Assembly (NCBI GenBank): GCA_030539565.1
Contig: JAUNYA010000002.1
Location: 1-34,039 of the forward strand
DNA length: 34,039 bases
Source of the DNA: Thermoplasmata archaeon
GTDB lineage: Archaea; Thermoplasmatota; Thermoplasmata; Methanomassiliicoccales; Methanomethylophilaceae
Direction: 5' to 3'
Positions 941-32,436 of this stretch are shown piece after piece. Made by a program: the position numbers and the translations under genes. The stretch's first letter is position 1, and each line of letters opens with the position of its first letter. The notes under the pieces were generated by a model. It saw only the letters and a list, made by a program, of their open reading frames with translations, was not told where the DNA came from and made no database searches.

Positions 941-2947
941 ATGAAGATAAAGTCCCTCCACGTCTCCCAGCTCTTCAACGAGTACGACTACGACCTCGAC
1001 CTCTGTCAGGGGCTCACGTTCGTCCACTCGCCGAACGGCATGGGCAAGAGCACCGTCATGAGGATGCTCTACGCGGCCCTCCGCGGGGACGTGGACTACC
1101 TCAGGGACACCCCCTTCGAGAGGATGGACATCGGGTTCGACGAGGGCAGCGTGCTCATCATCGAGAACTACCCCGGCAACTTCCTCGTCCAGATGTGGAG
1201 GAGCGAGGTCACCGTTCCCCTCACGCCCTCGGAGATGTCCGAGATCTGCGAGTCCGTGTACATCGGGCCCGACAGGCTGCTCATCAAGAGGAAGGACGGC
1301 CACATGGCCGCCACGCTGGAGGTCTTCGCCCAGGAGCTGCTGGAGACCATCCGCTACGCCAAGGAGCACCGCGAGCTGGAGCCCCATCCCAGGGACGACG
1401 TGGCCGACATGCCCGACGGGGACCTGGAGTTCTGGTGCAAGGACCTGAAGGCCAAGCTGGACTTCATCAAGGACGCCGGATTCGAGCCGGACATACCCGC
1501 CGGGAAGAAGTTCCCCCCGTCCCGCTACGAGATCGGCAAGGACAGGAAGGGCTACGAGGATCTCGCCTGCTCGATCGCGGACTACGTCGAGCGCAACTAC
1601 ATCCTCGCCGAGTCCATAATCATCTACAAGGACGTTGTCAACGAGATCTTCATCAACAAGACGATCAGCGTCTCCGACACCGGGAAGATCGGGGTGAGCA
1701 TGAACAACGGCACCTCGCTCCAGCTCCAGAAGCTGTCCTCCGGGGAGAAGCAGATCCTCATCCTGTTCTACGCGCTGCTCTTCCACGCCCCGCAGAACTC
1801 CGTCGTCATCCTGGACGAGCCGGAGATCTCCCTGCACGTGTCGTGGCAGCAGAAGCTCGGCGACTACTTCGTCGACATATGCAGGGTCCGCGGCATCCAG
1901 ATGATAGTCGCGACGCACTCGCCCCAGATCATCCATGACAAGTGGGACTCCGCCAGGGAGCTGAGGCATTCCAATGCGCGAGTACCTGACCTCCGAGGAC
2001 ATCTGCAACGAGCTCAGCATGGAGAGGACCGTCTTCGACGGCGTGTTCCTCATCGTCGAGGGCATAACGGACAGCAGGCTCTTCGGGAAGTTCATCGACA
2101 AGGACGGCGTGCAGATCCGCATCGCCCACTCCAAGGACAACGTGCGCAACGTCGTCAAGGGGATGTCCGGCAAGAGGAGGGACGAGCGCACGATCGGCAT
2201 CGTCGACCCGGACCTCGAGCTGCTCCGCGGGAGGACCGCCAAGCCCCCCATGTTCCACACCGACTGCAGGGACATGGAGATGATGGCCATCCGCAGCAAC
2301 GCCCTCGAGGACGTGCTGGACGAGTACGGGGACCCGGAGAAGCTGGAGAGGTTCAGGGAGACCGTGGGGCCCGTCAGGGACGCGCTGCTATCGGCCAGCT
2401 ACCTCATCGGGCTGCTGATGTACATCTCGCAGACCCGCGGACTCAACCTCAGCTTCAAGGACCTGGATTTCTACAGGTTCATCAACCAGAGGTCGCTGAG
2501 CCTCGACGCGTCGGCGATGGTCGCCGCCGTGATAGACAACTCCCGCTCGGTCCGCGTGGGGAGGAAGGAGCTCCTCAGGACCCTCAACGACGAGGCCGAG
2601 GCCCTGGACGACATGTGGAAGGCCGCACGCGGCCACGACACCATCGACATCCTGCTGATCGGCCTCAGGAAGACCTTCGGCGGGTTCAACGCCCAGGGCC
2701 TGAACGAGGGCGAGCTGGGCGGCGCGCTGAGGCTGGCGTTCTCGGACGCCTGCTTCAGGGAGACCGACCTCTACAGGGACACCGACAGGTGGGCGGCGGA
2801 GGCCGGCGTGGTCCTCTGGACCCTCACTCGACGTCGAAGTCCTCTGTTTTTATACCGTCGGCGGTCTCGATTATCTTCTGGATGCGCCTCTGGCCGTCGT
2901 CCAGGATGGCCTTGCAGTGGTCCCTGAGCACGACGGCCCTCTCGTAG
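941..2947 (+). CDS. SMC/ABC-type AAA ATPase, AriA-like (PARIS candidate); coding character ends near 1960-1975
   Basis: Residues 1-340 are a compact ABC/AAA15-type ATPase. The N-terminal strand is followed by Walker A PNGMGKST (31-38), the ABC signature LSSGEKQ (about 265-271), Walker B VVILDEPE (about 288-295) and the H-loop ATHSPQ (about 324-329). This layout is that of AriA, OLD-family and AbiEii-like ATPases. The ATG at 941 was chosen for its TATA spacing and because homologues begin this way. The frame has no stop until TAG at 2947. After about 1960, however, its translation is Arg/Gly/Pro-rich and merely shadows the next gene. A TGA at 1962-1964 lies one frame over, so a single-base shift would end the ATPase 9 bases before the DUF4435 start. 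The region is either frameshifted or has lost a stop. In PARIS the ATPase senses a phage anti-restriction protein and controls the TOPRIM partner. The PARIS assignment is inference from the gene pair. Confidence 0.75.
   Translation: MKIKSLHVSQLFNEYDYDLDLCQGLTFVHSPNGMGKSTVMRMLYAALRGDVDYLRDTPFERMDIGFDEGSVLIIENYPGNFLVQMWRSEVTVPLTPSEMSEICESVYIGPDRLLIKRKDGHMAATLEVFAQELLETIRYAKEHRELEPHPRDDVADMPDGDLEFWCKDLKAKLDFIKDAGFEPDIPAGKKFPPSRYEIGKDRKGYEDLACSIADYVERNYILAESIIIYKDVVNEIFINKTISVSDTGKIGVSMNNGTSLQLQKLSSGEKQILILFYALLFHAPQNSVVILDEPEISLHVSWQQKLGDYFVDICRVRGIQMIVATHSPQIIHDKWDSARELRHSNARVPDLRGHLQRAQHGEDRLRRRVPHRRGHNGQQALREVHRQGRRADPHRPLQGQRAQRRQGDVRQEEGRAHDRHRRPGPRAAPREDRQAPHVPHRLQGHGDDGHPQQRPRGRAGRVRGPGEAGEVQGDRGARQGRAAIGQLPHRAADVHLADPRTQPQLQGPGFLQVHQPEVAEPRRVGDGRRRDRQLPLGPRGEEGAPQDPQRRGRGPGRHVEGRTRPRHHRHPADRPQEDLRRVQRPGPERGRAGRRAEAGVLGRLLQGDRPLQGHRQVGGGGRRGPLDPHSTSKSSVFIPSAVSIIFWMRLWPSSRMALQWSLSTTALS
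1974..2927 (+). CDS. DUF4435 TOPRIM-like protein, AriB-like effector candidate
   Basis: Predicted 317 residues. The N-terminal half has TOPRIM hallmarks: the conserved acid in LIVEG (E29) followed by TDSRLFGKF, and an acidic DPD motif (D78, D80) after a hydrophobic strand. DUF4435 proteins pair with SMC/ABC-like ATPases, and in PARIS the AriB member is a TOPRIM nuclease that cleaves host tRNA. The ATG at 1974 has GAGG seven bases upstream and follows the end of the ATPase domain directly, so the two genes are surely one unit. A fused AriA-AriB reading is possible through a +1 shift between 1965 and 1974. The 3' end runs 104 bases into the convergent xseB gene, and its last 35 residues (Arg/Ser-rich) look like antisense sequence, so the natural end may be near 2825. 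DUF4435 identity is fairly secure. Nuclease activity and target are inferred. Confidence 0.75.
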   Translation: MREYLTSEDICNELSMERTVFDGVFLIVEGITDSRLFGKFIDKDGVQIRIAHSKDNVRNVVKGMSGKRRDERTIGIVDPDLELLRGRTAKPPMFHTDCRDMEMMAIRSNALEDVLDEYGDPEKLERFRETVGPVRDALLSASYLIGLLMYISQTRGLNLSFKDLDFYRFINQRSLSLDASAMVAAVIDNSRSVRVGRKELLRTLNDEAEALDDMWKAARGHDTIDILLIGLRKTFGGFNAQGLNEGELGGALRLAFSDACFRETDLYRDTDRWAAEAGVVLWTLTRRRSPLFLYRRRSRLSSGCASGRRPGWPCSGP

Positions 2948-3078
2948 ATCTCCAGGCTCCTGTCCAGGTCGGTTCCGCCCTGCTCCAGCTCCTGTACGAG
3001 CTGCTCCAGCGCCTCCATGCTTGCCTCGAAGCCCATCTCCGAGACCTCTGCCTTGTACTGCTCCATGTCGGATGTCAT
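2824..3078 (-). CDS. xseB: Exonuclease VII small subunit
   Basis: The 84-residue protein has the usual XseB length and its helical-hairpin pattern: FEASMEALEQLVQELEQGG, then DLDRSLEIYERAVVLRDHCKAIL. XseB binds several copies per XseA and is needed for the processive single-strand DNA exonuclease that degrades ssDNA from both ends. Its ATG overlaps the end of xseA by 4 bases (3075-3078, ATGA), so the order is xseA then xseB with translational coupling. The 3' end overlaps the convergent DUF4435 frame. Exonuclease VII is mainly bacterial, and its presence in this archaeal context suggests past transfer into the lineage. Confidence 0.93.
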   Translation of the reverse strand: MTSDMEQYKAEVSEMGFEASMEALEQLVQELEQGGTDLDRSLEIYERAVVLRDHCKAILDDGQRRIQKIIETADGIKTEDFDVE

Positions 3079-4481
3079 CTCTTCTCCTCCCTGATCTCCC
3101 TGACCGTCGCCTTCGCCGTCCCGTCGCGGAGGCGGATGTCCACCCTCTCGCCGACGAGCAGCCCGGAGACGGACGTGACGGCCCTCCCGTCCGGCCCCAT
3201 GAGGATCCCGTAGCCCCTCTCCATCACCCTGGTGGGGTTGAGGGAGGTGAGCCGCCCGTCGGCGGCCCTGAGCGACGCCTCTGCGGATGCGAGGACGCTC
3301 CGGGATTCGCTGGAAATTGAATTGAACGCGTAGTCCACGCGCGACGACCTCATCTCGAGGTCGGTAAGTGCGGATTGAGGCGAGAGCCTGCCGTAGACGG
3401 CGTCGAGGCGCGCATCGAGGGCCTCCAGGCGTCCGAGCGCCGCATTGGGCGAGATCCTGGCTTCGGCCACCTCGAACCGCCTCCTCATATCGGAGATCTG
3501 GTCGTTGAGGGCGCGCTCTGCGCGGGACATCAGGTCGTCCAGGGACATGGACTGCATGTCCATCTCCCTCATCGCCTTCTCCGGGGACAGCTGGGCGTCC
3601 AGCACCCTGAACCTGGACTCCATCCTCTCGATGACCGAGGACAGAGCCCTCGAAGCGTTGGCCATGTCCCTGTTCAGCTGGTCGCGGATCTCCGTCCTCT
3701 CCCTGAGGATGATCGCGGCGGCTCCGGTGGGGGTCGGTGCCCTCGCATCGGCGACGAAATCCGCTATCGTGAAGTCGGTCTCGTGGCCGACGGCGGATAC
3801 GATCGGGATCCCGGAAGCCGCGATGGCGCGGGCGACGATCTCCTCGTTGAAGGGCCAGAGGTCCTCCAGGGAGCCTCCTCCCCTGCCCACGATGATGACG
3901 TCGACGCCCACCTTGTTCAGCAGGCGGATCCCGGCGACAATGGTCTCCGCCGCACCTGCGCCCTGCACCTGTGCCGGAGCCAGCAGGATATCCGCGGGGA
4001 ACCTGGACGACGACGTGGTGATTATATCGTGGATCACCGCGCCCGTCTCGGACGTGACGACTCCGATGGTGCGCGGATACCTCGGAAGCGGCCTCTTCCT
4101 CTCCTGATCGAAGAGTCCCTCGGCCTTCAGCTTGGCCTTGAGCTCCTCGAACGCCTGGTACAGGTCCCCGATCCCGGTCTGGCGCATGGTGGCCACGATG
4201 AACTGGTAGGAGCCCCTCTGGACGTAGATGTCCAGGCTGCCGAAGGCGTTGACCTTCATGTTCTCCTTGGGCTCGAAGCTCATCCTGGAGCGGGCGCCGG
4301 CGAACAGCACGCCGCTGACCTGGCTCCCGGCGTCCTTCAATGTGAAATAGTAGTGCCCCGAGGAGTACTTCTTCAGGTTCGAGATCTCGCCCGTGACCCA
4401 GACGTCCGTCACGTCGGGGCTCTTCTTCAGCAGCTCCTTGGCCTTGTTGTTGAGCTGCGTGACGGTGAGGGTCTCGGCCAT
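3075..4481 (-). CDS. xseA: Exonuclease VII large subunit
   Basis: The 468-residue protein is full length for XseA. An N-terminal OB-fold (about 5-100, with VWVTGEISNLKKYSSGHYYFTLKD) is followed by the catalytic domain. Its conserved motifs are visible: VGRGGGSLEDLWPFNEE, SAVGHETDFTIADFVAD and RAPTPTGAA. A long coiled-coil segment (about 270-400) and a C-terminal segment (GYGILMGPDGRAVTSVSGL) follow, as in bacterial homologues. With XseB it forms the ssDNA-specific exonuclease used in mismatch repair and clearing of single-strand tails. A weak TATA (AAATAC on the minus strand, plus positions 4503-4508) lies 22-27 bases before the ATG, so the mRNA is probably leaderless. Confidence 0.95.
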   Translation of the reverse strand: MAETLTVTQLNNKAKELLKKSPDVTDVWVTGEISNLKKYSSGHYYFTLKDAGSQVSGVLFAGARSRMSFEPKENMKVNAFGSLDIYVQRGSYQFIVATMRQTGIGDLYQAFEELKAKLKAEGLFDQERKRPLPRYPRTIGVVTSETGAVIHDIITTSSSRFPADILLAPAQVQGAGAAETIVAGIRLLNKVGVDVIIVGRGGGSLEDLWPFNEEIVARAIAASGIPIVSAVGHETDFTIADFVADARAPTPTGAAAIILRERTEIRDQLNRDMANASRALSSVIERMESRFRVLDAQLSPEKAMREMDMQSMSLDDLMSRAERALNDQISDMRRRFEVAEARISPNAALGRLEALDARLDAVYGRLSPQSALTDLEMRSSRVDYAFNSISSESRSVLASAEASLRAADGRLTSLNPTRVMERGYGILMGPDGRAVTSVSGLLVGERVDIRLRDGTAKATVREIREEKR

Positions 4482-28980: not shown

Positions 28981-30591
28981 TCAGATTACCATGGCCAGTA
29001 TGACCAGTATGAACAGGAATAGCACCACCGTGGACACGTTCCCGGCGATGCTGTCCGTGAGCTTCCTGTTGCGCTCCGGGTCGCGTACCCCGAGCTTCTC
29101 CAGGAACCAGCTGACTCCTCCCGCGAATATGAAACCTCCGTCCAGGACGTAGGTGGGCAGGGCGTTGGATATCGCCAGCAGGATGTCCAGCCAGAATATC
29201 CAGTACATCAGCGTTATGAATATCCACGTCAGGTCGCCTCCAGGCGCATCGTACCACCACTTGACCTCGTCCGATATGGGATCCATGCCGTTGAACGGGC
29301 CGGACAGGTAGCTGAACAGCGCCGTGACGTACGAGTACGCGTCGGTCGTGTTGTAGAACGGGTTGACCGCCCTGTCCAGCAACTGGTCCGGCGTGGTGAA
29401 CGTCAGGCCGCCGGTCGTGGTGGTCACTCCGAGGAACCCGATGGAGTTCCTTGTCCCGAGCGTCACGGTGTGGTCCTCCATGGTGTACGCGCCGGTGTCG
29501 TCCATGACCGAGACGGTGGTGACGACGATCGTCTCACCGCCGGTGGTCGATGCCATGAACGCGTTGAACTCCCCGTACCCGCCGATGACGGTGGTCGTGC
29601 CGTCCATCGTTATGGAGTAGATGAACGTGCCCGCGGTGATCCCGCCCTCGTCCGCGCCGGATCCGGAGGTGATCGCCTTCACGTACAGGCCCATCTGCGT
29701 GGCCGTTGACGTATGGGTCCCGTCCTCCGTCATGTACGTGATTATGTACCGTTGGGTCGGGTCGAAATCGTAGTTCAGGTAGGCGGCCGAACCTGACAAA
29801 GTGGTTGTGAGATCCCCGGCGGTCTGGCCGGCCTCGTTGGTCCCGATGAGGAGGTTCCCGTCCTCGTCGGATATGCCGATAATGAGAGCGGACGCGGGGA
29901 TCCCGGCATTGTACGCCGGCGAGCCGTCGTCCACATAGTAAACGCCCGCGCTGTCCCCGTAGTCGGAGGACACGAAGCCGCAGGCGAAGATCATCAGAAG
30001 GATGCTTATGACCGCGAACACGGTGTTCACGGTGATGCCCGCGGCGTAGACGTCGATCTGCGCCTTGCGGGGCTTCTTGGCCATCTCCTCCTCGTTGGGC
30101 TCGACGAACGCGCCCATGGGGACCACGACGTACAGGAGCCCGGAGGACTCGACGCGGATCCCGTTGACGCGCGCCTGTATCCCGTGGCCGAGCTCGTGGA
30201 CGACCATGGCGAAGAAGAGCGCCACGATCCCGTAGCTCAGCGGCATGATGGGGTTGAACCCGGGGATGGCCAGGGCGTACTCTATGCCGATGGACGAGCC
30301 GGACGCGAGCCTCGAGGGCACCGCCAGGAGCGCCACGATCAGCATGTACATCATCAGGAAGAACAGCACCGCGGAGACCAGCTTGGAGGCGAACCCGAAG
30401 GCGTGCCAGAAGCGGGGATACGCCGCCAGGCGATCCATCGTCTTCATTCCGAGCTGCGTCTTGATCATGATGCAGGGCCCGTACTTCTGGAGATGCCAGC
30501 GCGCGGCCTTCTCCGGGTTCCTCCAGACCCACACCCAGATCGGGATGTACACGATGAGCAGGATCAGCATTACAAGGTACGCGGTGCTCAT
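28981..30591 (-). CDS. M50 site-2-type intramembrane metalloprotease with PDZ domain
   Basis: The 536-residue membrane protein has the zinc motif HELGH (132-136) in a transmembrane helix and, far downstream, NALPTYVLDGG, the third zinc ligand region of site-2 proteases. Between them is a PDZ-like segment starting GVYYVDDGSPAYNAGI and an extracytoplasmic region of about 200 residues rich in Thr, Ser and Gly. Such proteases cut transmembrane proteins, often releasing membrane-bound regulators. The ATG at 30591 was chosen from the start of the hydrophobic N-terminus. It lies 33 bases after the TAG of mptE, and a read-through mptE frame would end in an ATGA overlap with it. Confidence 0.9.
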   Translation of the reverse strand: MSTAYLVMLILLIVYIPIWVWVWRNPEKAARWHLQKYGPCIMIKTQLGMKTMDRLAAYPRFWHAFGFASKLVSAVLFFLMMYMLIVALLAVPSRLASGSSIGIEYALAIPGFNPIMPLSYGIVALFFAMVVHELGHGIQARVNGIRVESSGLLYVVVPMGAFVEPNEEEMAKKPRKAQIDVYAAGITVNTVFAVISILLMIFACGFVSSDYGDSAGVYYVDDGSPAYNAGIPASALIIGISDEDGNLLIGTNEAGQTAGDLTTTLSGSAAYLNYDFDPTQRYIITYMTEDGTHTSTATQMGLYVKAITSGSGADEGGITAGTFIYSITMDGTTTVIGGYGEFNAFMASTTGGETIVVTTVSVMDDTGAYTMEDHTVTLGTRNSIGFLGVTTTTGGLTFTTPDQLLDRAVNPFYNTTDAYSYVTALFSYLSGPFNGMDPISDEVKWWYDAPGGDLTWIFITLMYWIFWLDILLAISNALPTYVLDGGFIFAGGVSWFLEKLGVRDPERNRKLTDSIAGNVSTVVLFLFILVILAMVI

Positions 30592-30623
30592 GATATCTCC
30601 CCGTGCCCGTGGATGGCATCCTT

Positions 30624-31325
30624 CTATAAAACAAAACACCAAGGCTGGATGCGAAATGCTCGGAGCATCGGACGGAGCGTCTCGACGCCTCCTACGGAGG
30701 CGATTATCTCCCTGGCCCAGGCAAGCTTGCGGAGCTTGACGGCGGGGTCCGATCCCTCCTTGGGGTTGGGGTGCTCGAAGTCGAAGCCCTCCAGCAGGAT
30801 GCTCCGGGCGCCCAGCTCCCTCGCGATGCACACGGCGCGGTCGCCGTCGGTGAACCCGCCGAAGTTGAACACGGTGGTGGACGGAATGGACTGCGTGGTC
30901 AGAACCACGGGGCCCTCGAACTTGCCTGCATGCATGCGTACGAGCTCGCCGTTGTCCCCGTGGGCGTGGATGAACGTGACCGCGCCGGACCTGCTGGCCT
31001 CCAGCTGCGCGTCGATGTCGCCGTCCAGATCCGTCACGACGGCATCCGGGCGTATTCCTAGGGCCAGAAGCCTCCTGACCGCGGAGCCGGAAGCGACCAG
31101 CGGCCCGAGCGGGGGACGCGAACGGATATCGTCCTCCAGGCAGGGCGCGTCCCCGAACACTGTCGCACCGTCCGAGAACATCGGGCGCAGGTCGTCCGGG
31201 TCCACGAGGTCGGAACCGGTGGTGACGGCCTTCAGTATCCTGACGGTCGCCTCGTCCTCCTCCCGGGAGTAGCCCATGTCGGAGAGGATCCTCTCGTAGA
31301 ACTGTTCCCACTCAGGCGGCCTCAT
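30624..31325 (-). CDS. mptE: 6-hydroxymethyl-7,8-dihydropterin pyrophosphokinase (MptE, DUF115)
   Basis: The 233-residue protein matches the archaeal MptE/DUF115 family: VFGDAPCLEDDI, PLVASGSAVRRLLALGIRPDAVVTDLDGD, FIHAHGDNGELVR and GGFTDGDRAVCIARELGA. It adds pyrophosphate to 6-hydroxymethyl-dihydropterin, a step towards tetrahydromethanopterin, the C1 carrier of methanogens. The ATG overlaps the DUF373 stop by 14 bases. The stop is TAG, the only believable TAG stop in this window. Read-through would add twelve codons (the TAG, then KDAIHGHGEIS) and end at TGA overlapping the protease ATG. Confidence 0.88.
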   Translation of the reverse strand: MRPPEWEQFYERILSDMGYSREEDEATVRILKAVTTGSDLVDPDDLRPMFSDGATVFGDAPCLEDDIRSRPPLGPLVASGSAVRRLLALGIRPDAVVTDLDGDIDAQLEASRSGAVTFIHAHGDNGELVRMHAGKFEGPVVLTTQSIPSTTVFNFGGFTDGDRAVCIARELGARSILLEGFDFEHPNPKEGSDPAVKLRKLAWAREIIASVGGVETLRPMLRAFRIQPWCFVL

Positions 31326-32436
31326 CAGCCACCGCCTCGTCGTCGACGGGCCTCATCTTGTTCCTGAGGACGCTGTTCGAGATGGACAGCAGGATACCGG
31401 CGATGATCTCGACGACGCCCATGTTGGTGCCCATGCCCGCGTCCAGATAGGCCATGCCGACGTCGAATATACCGGACGCGACGAGACCGAGGCTCGCCAT
31501 CCCCAGGCATCCGAACACGACGGAGACTCCGACCTCCTTGTGCTTCATGAACTTCTCGATTATGTGCCCGCCCTGGTAGATGATGACGGCGATGATCAGC
31601 GGCCAGATCATGGTCGAGACGTAGTACATCACCTTCACCACATCGTTCCTGAGGTACAGGTTGCCGATCTCCACGTAGGTGTACGCTGCCATGAGGACCA
31701 CGAACGCCAGGGAGATGCTCAGGAAGATGATGGGGGTGGTGCGCCCGGTCATGGAGGCGACGATGTTCCTCCTCATGTCGTAGAGGCGCTCGGTGGTGTT
31801 GTACCCGTACAGCAGGATTATCAGGCCGATGAAGAACACGGCCATCGAGCCGGACATGGAGCTGAGCCTAGCCGGGTCCCAGTCTGTGATGTACACCAAC
31901 AGCCCGGGTATCAGGAAGAACAGGGACAGCAGGATGATCACGTACCCCAGGGGGATCATGAACCTCTTCCTCTTGTCCGGGTCGTTCAGCATCTTGGTGA
32001 TGATATAGAACGTGCCCTCCAGACCGGGGGCCTGCTTGACGTAGACCTTGCGCACGGAGTCCACATGGGCGCGGGAGGAGATGATCGGGTAGATGTACTC
32101 GTCCTCCGCACCGTCGCCGACCAGGACGACGCTGTCCGGGTTGATCTCGTCCAGGACCTCCTCCAGCTGCGAGACGAGCGCCAGATCGGACCTGTGGCCC
32201 ACCTTCTCGTCCCCGCAGATGAGGGCGACGTCGGCCTCGCGGCCGTCCTCCTGGAGCTCCAGGCAGGCGCTCACGGCGGCGTACAAGGCGTTGAGGTCCG
32301 AGTCCTCGGGGTCCGCGATTCCGAAGGCTGTGGCCGCGTCGAGGCAGTTCTGCACCCCGATGACCGGAGTGTTCACCTTCCCCTTGACGCCGAAGTCGTC
32401 GTCCCTGTCGACGACCAGGACCAGAGTCTTCTTCAT
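31312..32436 (-). CDS. DUF373 family membrane protein
   Basis: The 374-residue archaeal-specific protein has a soluble N-terminal domain of about 170 residues (LVLVVDRDDDFGVKG, ALICGDEKVGHRSDLALVSQLEEVL). Six to seven transmembrane helices follow. Function of DUF373 is unknown. The ATG at 32436 is about 27 bases from a TATA-like element (plus 32458-32466), so it heads the five-gene minus operon. The longer upstream frame starting at 32565 overlaps the divergent hydrolase and was rejected. Confidence 0.9.
   Translation of the reverse strand: MKKTLVLVVDRDDDFGVKGKVNTPVIGVQNCLDAATAFGIADPEDSDLNALYAAVSACLELQEDGREADVALICGDEKVGHRSDLALVSQLEEVLDEINPDSVVLVGDGAEDEYIYPIISSRAHVDSVRKVYVKQAPGLEGTFYIITKMLNDPDKRKRFMIPLGYVIILLSLFFLIPGLLVYITDWDPARLSSMSGSMAVFFIGLIILLYGYNTTERLYDMRRNIVASMTGRTTPIIFLSISLAFVVLMAAYTYVEIGNLYLRNDVVKVMYYVSTMIWPLIIAVIIYQGGHIIEKFMKHKEVGVSVVFGCLGMASLGLVASGIFDVGMAYLDAGMGTNMGVVEIIAGILLSISNSVLRNKMRPVDDEAVADEAA

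What the first reader, a model, noticed from the sequence alone, without database searches (positions are those of the whole stretch)
30588..30629. Sole TAG stop lies in mptE, and readthrough would end in an ATGA overlap with the next gene
Of 33 genes with a credible stop I count one TAG. Reading through it adds twelve codons (TAG, then KDAIHGHGEIS), and the frame then ends at TGA overlapping the protease ATG as ATGA, the coupling seen elsewhere in this window. In pyrrolysine-decoding methanogens, TAG can be read as an amino acid. MptE could therefore have a Pyl-containing tail, or the two genes may be coupled only when Pyl is inserted.
Basis: partly seen in the sequence, partly recalled or inferred. 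Interest (0 to 1): 0.55.

Follow-up and report, generated by a model that had tools for sequence, protein, structure and literature searches.

The report
Amber codon inside neighbour's TATA box
The lone TAG that ends this gene is part of the next gene's promoter; this archaeon can read TAG as the rare amino acid pyrrolysine, so a short tail may sometimes be added, but nothing suggests that the tail or a coupling to the next gene has been selected.

Summary
In detail: mptE (window 31325-30624, minus strand) ends in TAG at 30626-30624. Reading through adds TAG plus 11 codons to a TGA that overlaps the M50 protease ATG as ATGA. The genome has pylT (anticodon CTA), pylS, pylC, pylB, part of pylD, and MtmB/MttB genes with in-frame TAG, so UAG can be decoded as pyrrolysine.

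The specific interpretation fails. The TAG is the 3' end of TTTATAG, the TATA box of the M50 gene. A TATA-like element lies 28-41 bases before the M50 start in 27 of 27 genus loci tested. The mptE stretch just before the TAG is not coding-like (codons 221-233), and AlphaFold gives pLDDT below 50 for residues 221-244. Relatives end mptE with TGA or TAA, usually before the TATA box, and nothing after the TAG is conserved as protein. Most likely the lineage lost its ancestral stop and the frame ran into the neighbour's promoter. Decoding there is probably a contest between Pyl insertion and release. M50 appears to have its own promoter, so Pyl-dependent coupling is unsupported.

A better Pyl-MptE candidate is in a congener (G009): an in-frame TAG in the conserved C-terminal helix, before invariant W203, A204 and I207.

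The parts
30624..31325 (-). mptE (6-hydroxymethylpterin diphosphokinase MptE-like), 233 codons plus TAG
   Evidence: Pfam PF01973, 68.3 bits against a cut-off of 34.6; orthologues in 29 of 31 genus genomes
30624..30626 (-). the TAG codon (position 234 of the frame)
30624..30630 (-). TTTATAG: TATA box of the M50 gene; its last three bases are the TAG
   Evidence: first T at -39 from the M50 ATG; TATA-like element in 27 of 27 genus loci, opposite strand 3 of 27
30627..30665 (-). codons 221-233 of mptE: spacer-like DNA in open frame, not coding-like
   Evidence: mean codon score -1.18, third-position GC 0.38; pLDDT below 50
30588..30623 (-). possible read-through tail KDAIHGHGEIS and the back-up TGA (30590-30588)
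   Evidence: not conserved in relatives
28981..30591 (-). M50 family membrane metalloprotease gene, 536 codons
   Evidence: Pfam PF02163, 100.9 bits; start placed by relatives
31312..32436 (-). DUF373 gene upstream of mptE, overlapping its start by 14 bases
   Evidence: Pfam PF04123, 291 bits; coordinates

Best explanation
The TAG is a promoter-embedded, accidental stop. The lineage lost the ancestral mptE stop, which in most relatives lies before the M50 TATA box. The open frame then ran through variable spacer DNA into that TATA box, where TTTATAG happens to supply TAG in frame. In this Pyl-decoding archaeon the ribosome at UAG probably faces a contest between release and Pyl-tRNA; whatever fraction reads through stops 11 codons later at TGA, giving a 245-residue protein with a disordered tail of no selected function. 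M50 is transcribed from its own TATA box. Shown: gene layout, TATA conservation, lack of tail conservation, Pyl genes. Inferred: loss of the ancestral stop, decoding at this UAG, transcription from the TATA box, absence of a function for the tail.
For: TATA-like element 28-41 bases before M50 in 27 of 27 genus loci, exact TTTATA in 18, opposite strand 3 of 27; genome-wide TTTATA upstream of 17 of 342 genes against 3 of 342 on the opposite strand. mptE stops before the TATA box in 19 of 27 loci, and in or beyond it in 8, which shows that the end of this frame wanders. Codons 221-233 score -1.18 each against +0.64 for 196-210. pLDDT below 50 from residue 221 on. No tail conservation among 31 proteins. 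Pyl genes.
Against: No strain of the same species was available, so conservation of the tail within the species is untested. The 11 codons after the TAG score mildly positive (+0.32 per codon), though over only 11 codons of GC-rich leader. No transcript data: the TATA box is inferred from sequence. A single draft genome (69% complete) carries the allele.
Confidence: 0.8

Rival explanations
1. TAG is effectively a sense codon in this genus, so MptE here is routinely a 245-residue protein with Pyl234 and an 11-residue tail, ending at TGA. The tail may still be functionless.
For: Complete or near-complete Pyl system. In congener G009 TAGs fall inside Pfam matches for PhoU, methyltransferase, 4Fe-4S and GNAT domains, and in G004 inside a GNAT match. 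TAG ends are rare: 8 of 457, 3 of 656 in G004 after 3 methylamine-methyltransferase-type genes (recognised by eye) are set aside. I recall a 2025 Science paper on archaea that read all TAGs as Pyl; it is not held.
Against: Several confident genes of this genome end at TAG with non-coding-like extensions (e.g. a helicase with 9 and a PBP-domain gene with 8 further codons, scores negative), so TAG as an end is tolerated. No peptide data. This is compatible with the best explanation for the origin of the TAG and differs only on decoding.
Confidence: 0.35
2. Regulated coupling: Pyl insertion carries the ribosome to TGA at ATGA, so that M50 is translated by re-initiation only when Pyl is available.
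For: The ATGA overlap exists; one relative, L030, ends mptE in an ATGA overlap with M50 by an ordinary TGA.
Against: M50 has a conserved TATA box of its own; 19 of 27 loci stop mptE before that box with no overlap; no relative has the TAG; no PYLIS or special fold.
Confidence: 0.04
3. The missing ordinary stop is an assembly or sequencing error (indel) in the mptE tail, which put the frame onto the TATA box.
For: The genome is a draft of 171 contigs, 69% complete; L004 likewise lacks a stop and its frame runs on into M50.
Against: Seven of the 27 loci besides the window also pass the TATA box in open frame (L004, L015, L016, L019, L029, L030, L032), so such frames occur in several assemblies.
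Confidence: 0.1

Closest known systems
TAG-ended and TAG-interrupted genes of 'Ca. Methanomethylophilus alvus' (Borrel et al. 2014, PMC4153887)
   Same: Pyl-decoding Methanomassiliicoccales lineage; TAG rare as a stop (1.6% there, 8 of 457 here); extra genes with in-frame TAG
   Different: Their Pyl candidates continue into sequence with the same BLASTP hit after the TAG; window mptE does not. MptE is not in their Table 7 by that name (read). G009 mptE does resemble their candidates.
Methylamine methyltransferases MtmB/MtbB/MttB
   Same: UAG in a gene of a Pyl-decoding methanogen; both MtmB and MttB occur in this genome
   Different: there Pyl is catalytic and internal (PMC8211752, passages); here the TAG is terminal and lies in a disordered tail
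Archaeal TATA-box promoter overlapping the 3' end of the upstream gene
   Same: TTTATA about 39 bases before the start codon, on the sense strand, kept across the genus
   Different: in the window its last bases also serve as the upstream gene's stop or Pyl codon

Membership tests
Pyl-containing protein (window MptE) | host carries pylT, pylS and pylBCD | tested here: met
   pylD only partial at a contig end, below its cut-off
Pyl-containing protein (window MptE) | homologous coding sequence continues past the UAG | tested here: not met
   no relative shares the tail; pLDDT below 50
Pyl-containing protein (window MptE) | peptide with Pyl observed | not testable with these tools
   needs mass spectrometry
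Programmed stop-codon read-through | conserved extension or cis signal | tested here: not met
   no conserved extension, no Rfam match, fold z-scores 0.15 to 0.79
MptE-like (PF01973) | Pfam match over the curated cut-off | tested here: met
   68.3 against 34.6 bits; NCBIfam gave no family
MptE-like (PF01973) | 6-hydroxymethylpterin diphosphokinase activity | not testable with these tools
   enzyme assay needed
Archaeal TATA promoter of the M50 gene | TATA element at a kept distance on the sense strand | tested here: met
   27 of 27 loci, opposite strand 3 of 27
Archaeal TATA promoter of the M50 gene | transcription start about 25-30 bases downstream | not testable with these tools
   needs 5'-end mapping; the distance is recalled

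The most novel reading that the evidence does not exclude
TAG is always read as pyrrolysine in this genus, so the window's MptE is a 245-residue protein whose Pyl codon is cut out of its neighbour's TATA box; and in congener G009 MptE carries Pyl inside its conserved C-terminal helix, which would make methanopterin synthesis, and so methanogenesis itself, depend on pyrrolysine supply.
Probability: 0.3. Interest if true: 0.6.

Novelty: new member of a known kind. Interest (0 to 1): 0.3.

Why it matters
It shows how a TAG end can arise in a Pyl-decoding archaeon without selection: the codon is supplied by a constrained neighbour (here a TATA box; in another gene of the same genome a tRNA gene). 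Such TAGs should be set apart before counting Pyl proteins or TAG stops. If the G009 case is real, an enzyme assigned to the methanopterin pathway would contain Pyl, tying methanogenesis to the Pyl system beyond the methylamine enzymes.

Tried and rejected
Tried without gain: RNA folding and Rfam around the TAG. A back-up-stop test (do TAG-ended genes have a nearer second stop, within 18 codons?): 6 of 8 against 171 of 433, p = 0.049, with methyltransferases dropped and a threshold chosen afterwards; 6 of 10, p = 0.16, with them kept; G004 2 of 6 and G009 1 of 3 show nothing. I call it inconclusive. A first gene caller was mistrained (it called antisense ORFs); its counts were discarded for those. 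Literature: no paper held with both 'pyrrolysine' and 'MptE'; a 'Pyl code' search was empty; the recalled 2025 Science paper on TAG as Pyl is not held and one search listed nothing relevant.

Considered and rejected: Pyl-dependent mptE-M50 coupling (own TATA box); a selected Pyl tail (no conservation, disordered); PYLIS-driven decoding.

Rows dropped: L033, L035, L036 and L037 are named copies of L005, L015, L016 and L019 and are not counted in the 27 genus loci. L021 and L026 look nearly identical and both are counted. L008, L031 and L042 run off their contigs. L011 gave no M50 hit, though a TTTATAG can be seen. L004 and L026 were left out of alignment A1. L034 and L038 to L041 are named relatives outside the 27; L034 and L041 had no TATA match in the range, L038 and L039 did, and L040 has no adjacent M50.

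Full report
What is there. On the minus strand a DUF373 gene, mptE and an M50 membrane protease follow each other. mptE ends in TAG at 30626-30624. Read through, it gains O234 and KDAIHGHGEIS and stops at TGA 30590-30588, which overlaps the M50 ATG (30591-30589) as ATGA. In my count the window has 28 genes at score 20 or more: 25 TGA, 2 TAA and 1 TAG.

The host can decode TAG as pyrrolysine. The same assembly holds pylT just upstream of pylS, with anticodon CTA, pylS, pylC, pylB on another contig, and a pylD fragment at a contig end, below the family cut-off. PylS is over its cut-off in 27 of 31 genomes of the genus; the other four have partial or weaker matches. MtmB and MttB genes with in-frame TAG are present. 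In 554 kb of the genome 10 of 459 confident genes meet TAG first; without the 2 methyltransferases 8 of 457 end there. This agrees with the 1.6% of TAG stops and 16 additional Pyl candidates given for 'Ca. M. alvus' (PMC4153887, passages and section 12). A review says that no cis signal has been found to be required and that Pyl insertion is proposed to compete with release factors (PMC8211752, passages).

Where the TAG comes from. I compared 27 mptE/M50 loci of the genus, from 26 genomes. A TATA-like element lies 28-41 bases before the M50 start in all 27, the exact TTTATA in 18; the same loose pattern on the opposite strand occurs in 3 of 27. Across confident genes of the window's genome TTTATA occurs upstream in 17 of 342 and on the opposite strand in 3 of 342; its positions cluster around -40 to -26, most clearly in G004 and G009. 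In the window TTTATA starts at -39 and the next base is G: the TAG is the end of TTTATAG. In 19 of 27 loci mptE stops before the TATA box (G009 counted by its TGA, seen). In 8 it stops in or beyond it: the window in it; L015, L016, L019 and L032 at -20; L029 at -9; L030 as an ATGA overlap; L004 far inside the M50 gene. First stops are 23 TGA, 2 TAA and 2 TAG (the window, and an internal TAG in G009).

The tail does not look like protein that selection has kept. Conservation among 31 MptE proteins ends at the helix KLxWAxxII. Codon score falls from +0.64 per codon (196-210) to -1.18 (221-233), and third-position GC from 0.87 to 0.38; the 11 codons after the TAG score +0.32. AlphaFold2 on the read-through protein with 30 relatives gives mean pLDDT 89.7 but below 50 for residues 221-244, so disorder begins before the TAG and includes the read-through part. 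No PYLIS match or special fold is found.

Mechanism, with status. Shown: layout, TATA conservation, unconserved tail, Pyl genes. Inferred: an ancestor lost its stop, the frame ran on through the spacer, and the TATA box supplied TAG. G026 (L004), which groups with the window on the MptE tree (support 95/30, weak), also lacks the usual stop, in line with a shared loss. Inferred: UAG here is decoded as Pyl in some fraction, and the TGA 11 codons on keeps this harmless. A hint that TAG ends are tolerated mainly where a back-up stop is near did not hold across genomes. M50 has a promoter-like element of its own, so coupling through Pyl is not needed.

A better lead than the one given. In congener G009 mptE has TAG inside the conserved C-terminal helix: RKL-TAG-WARKIIQNLQIL, then TGA. 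The codon precedes residues that are invariant in the alignment (W203, A204, I207) and corresponds to position 202, in a helix of the model at residues 194-211. Four relatives have Gln codons there (L025, L028, L034, L039); CAG is one transition from TAG. G009 also has TAGs inside Pfam matches for PhoU, methyltransferase, 4Fe-4S and GNAT domains, so sense reading there is likely. G009 is one draft assembly and the TAG was not checked against reads.

Noticed in passing
L018:2092-2094 (+), same place as L145:10070-10072 (G009:C8): In-frame TAG within the conserved C-terminal helix of G009 mptE, before invariant W203, A204 and I207; a stronger Pyl-MptE candidate than the window's.
   Followed up: partly
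L161:1507-3180, L162:4216-5331, L163:1206-2327, L160:6910-7383 (G009); L135:3642-4187 (G004): TAG inside Pfam matches of a Na/Pi-cotransporter-PhoU protein, a methyltransferase, an aldo/keto reductase with 4Fe-4S domain and two GNAT proteins: likely sense TAGs.
   Followed up: partly
L119:2511-2596 and 2587-4422 (-): A 611-codon PBP-domain gene of the window's genome takes its TAG from the start of a tRNA-Ser gene: a second stop supplied by a constrained neighbour.
   Followed up: partly
L004:1501-3222 (+): In G026 the mptE frame has no stop before or in the TATA box and runs on out of frame through much of M50 (574 codons); real overlap or an indel.
   Followed up: no
L001 (G000:C16) and G000:C98:3989-4999; G004:C1:1270686-1272635: In the window's genome pylT-pylS-pylC-pylD lie together and pylB elsewhere; in G004 pylB follows pylS directly. 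The Pyl cluster is rearranged within the genus.
   Followed up: no
mptE/M50 spacers of many genus loci, just after the TATA box: A block like GATGAAGGCTTA or GATGAGGGCAT follows the TATA box in many relatives (e.g. L004, L011, L014, L018, L021) and is weaker in the window; possibly an operator or initiator.
   Followed up: no
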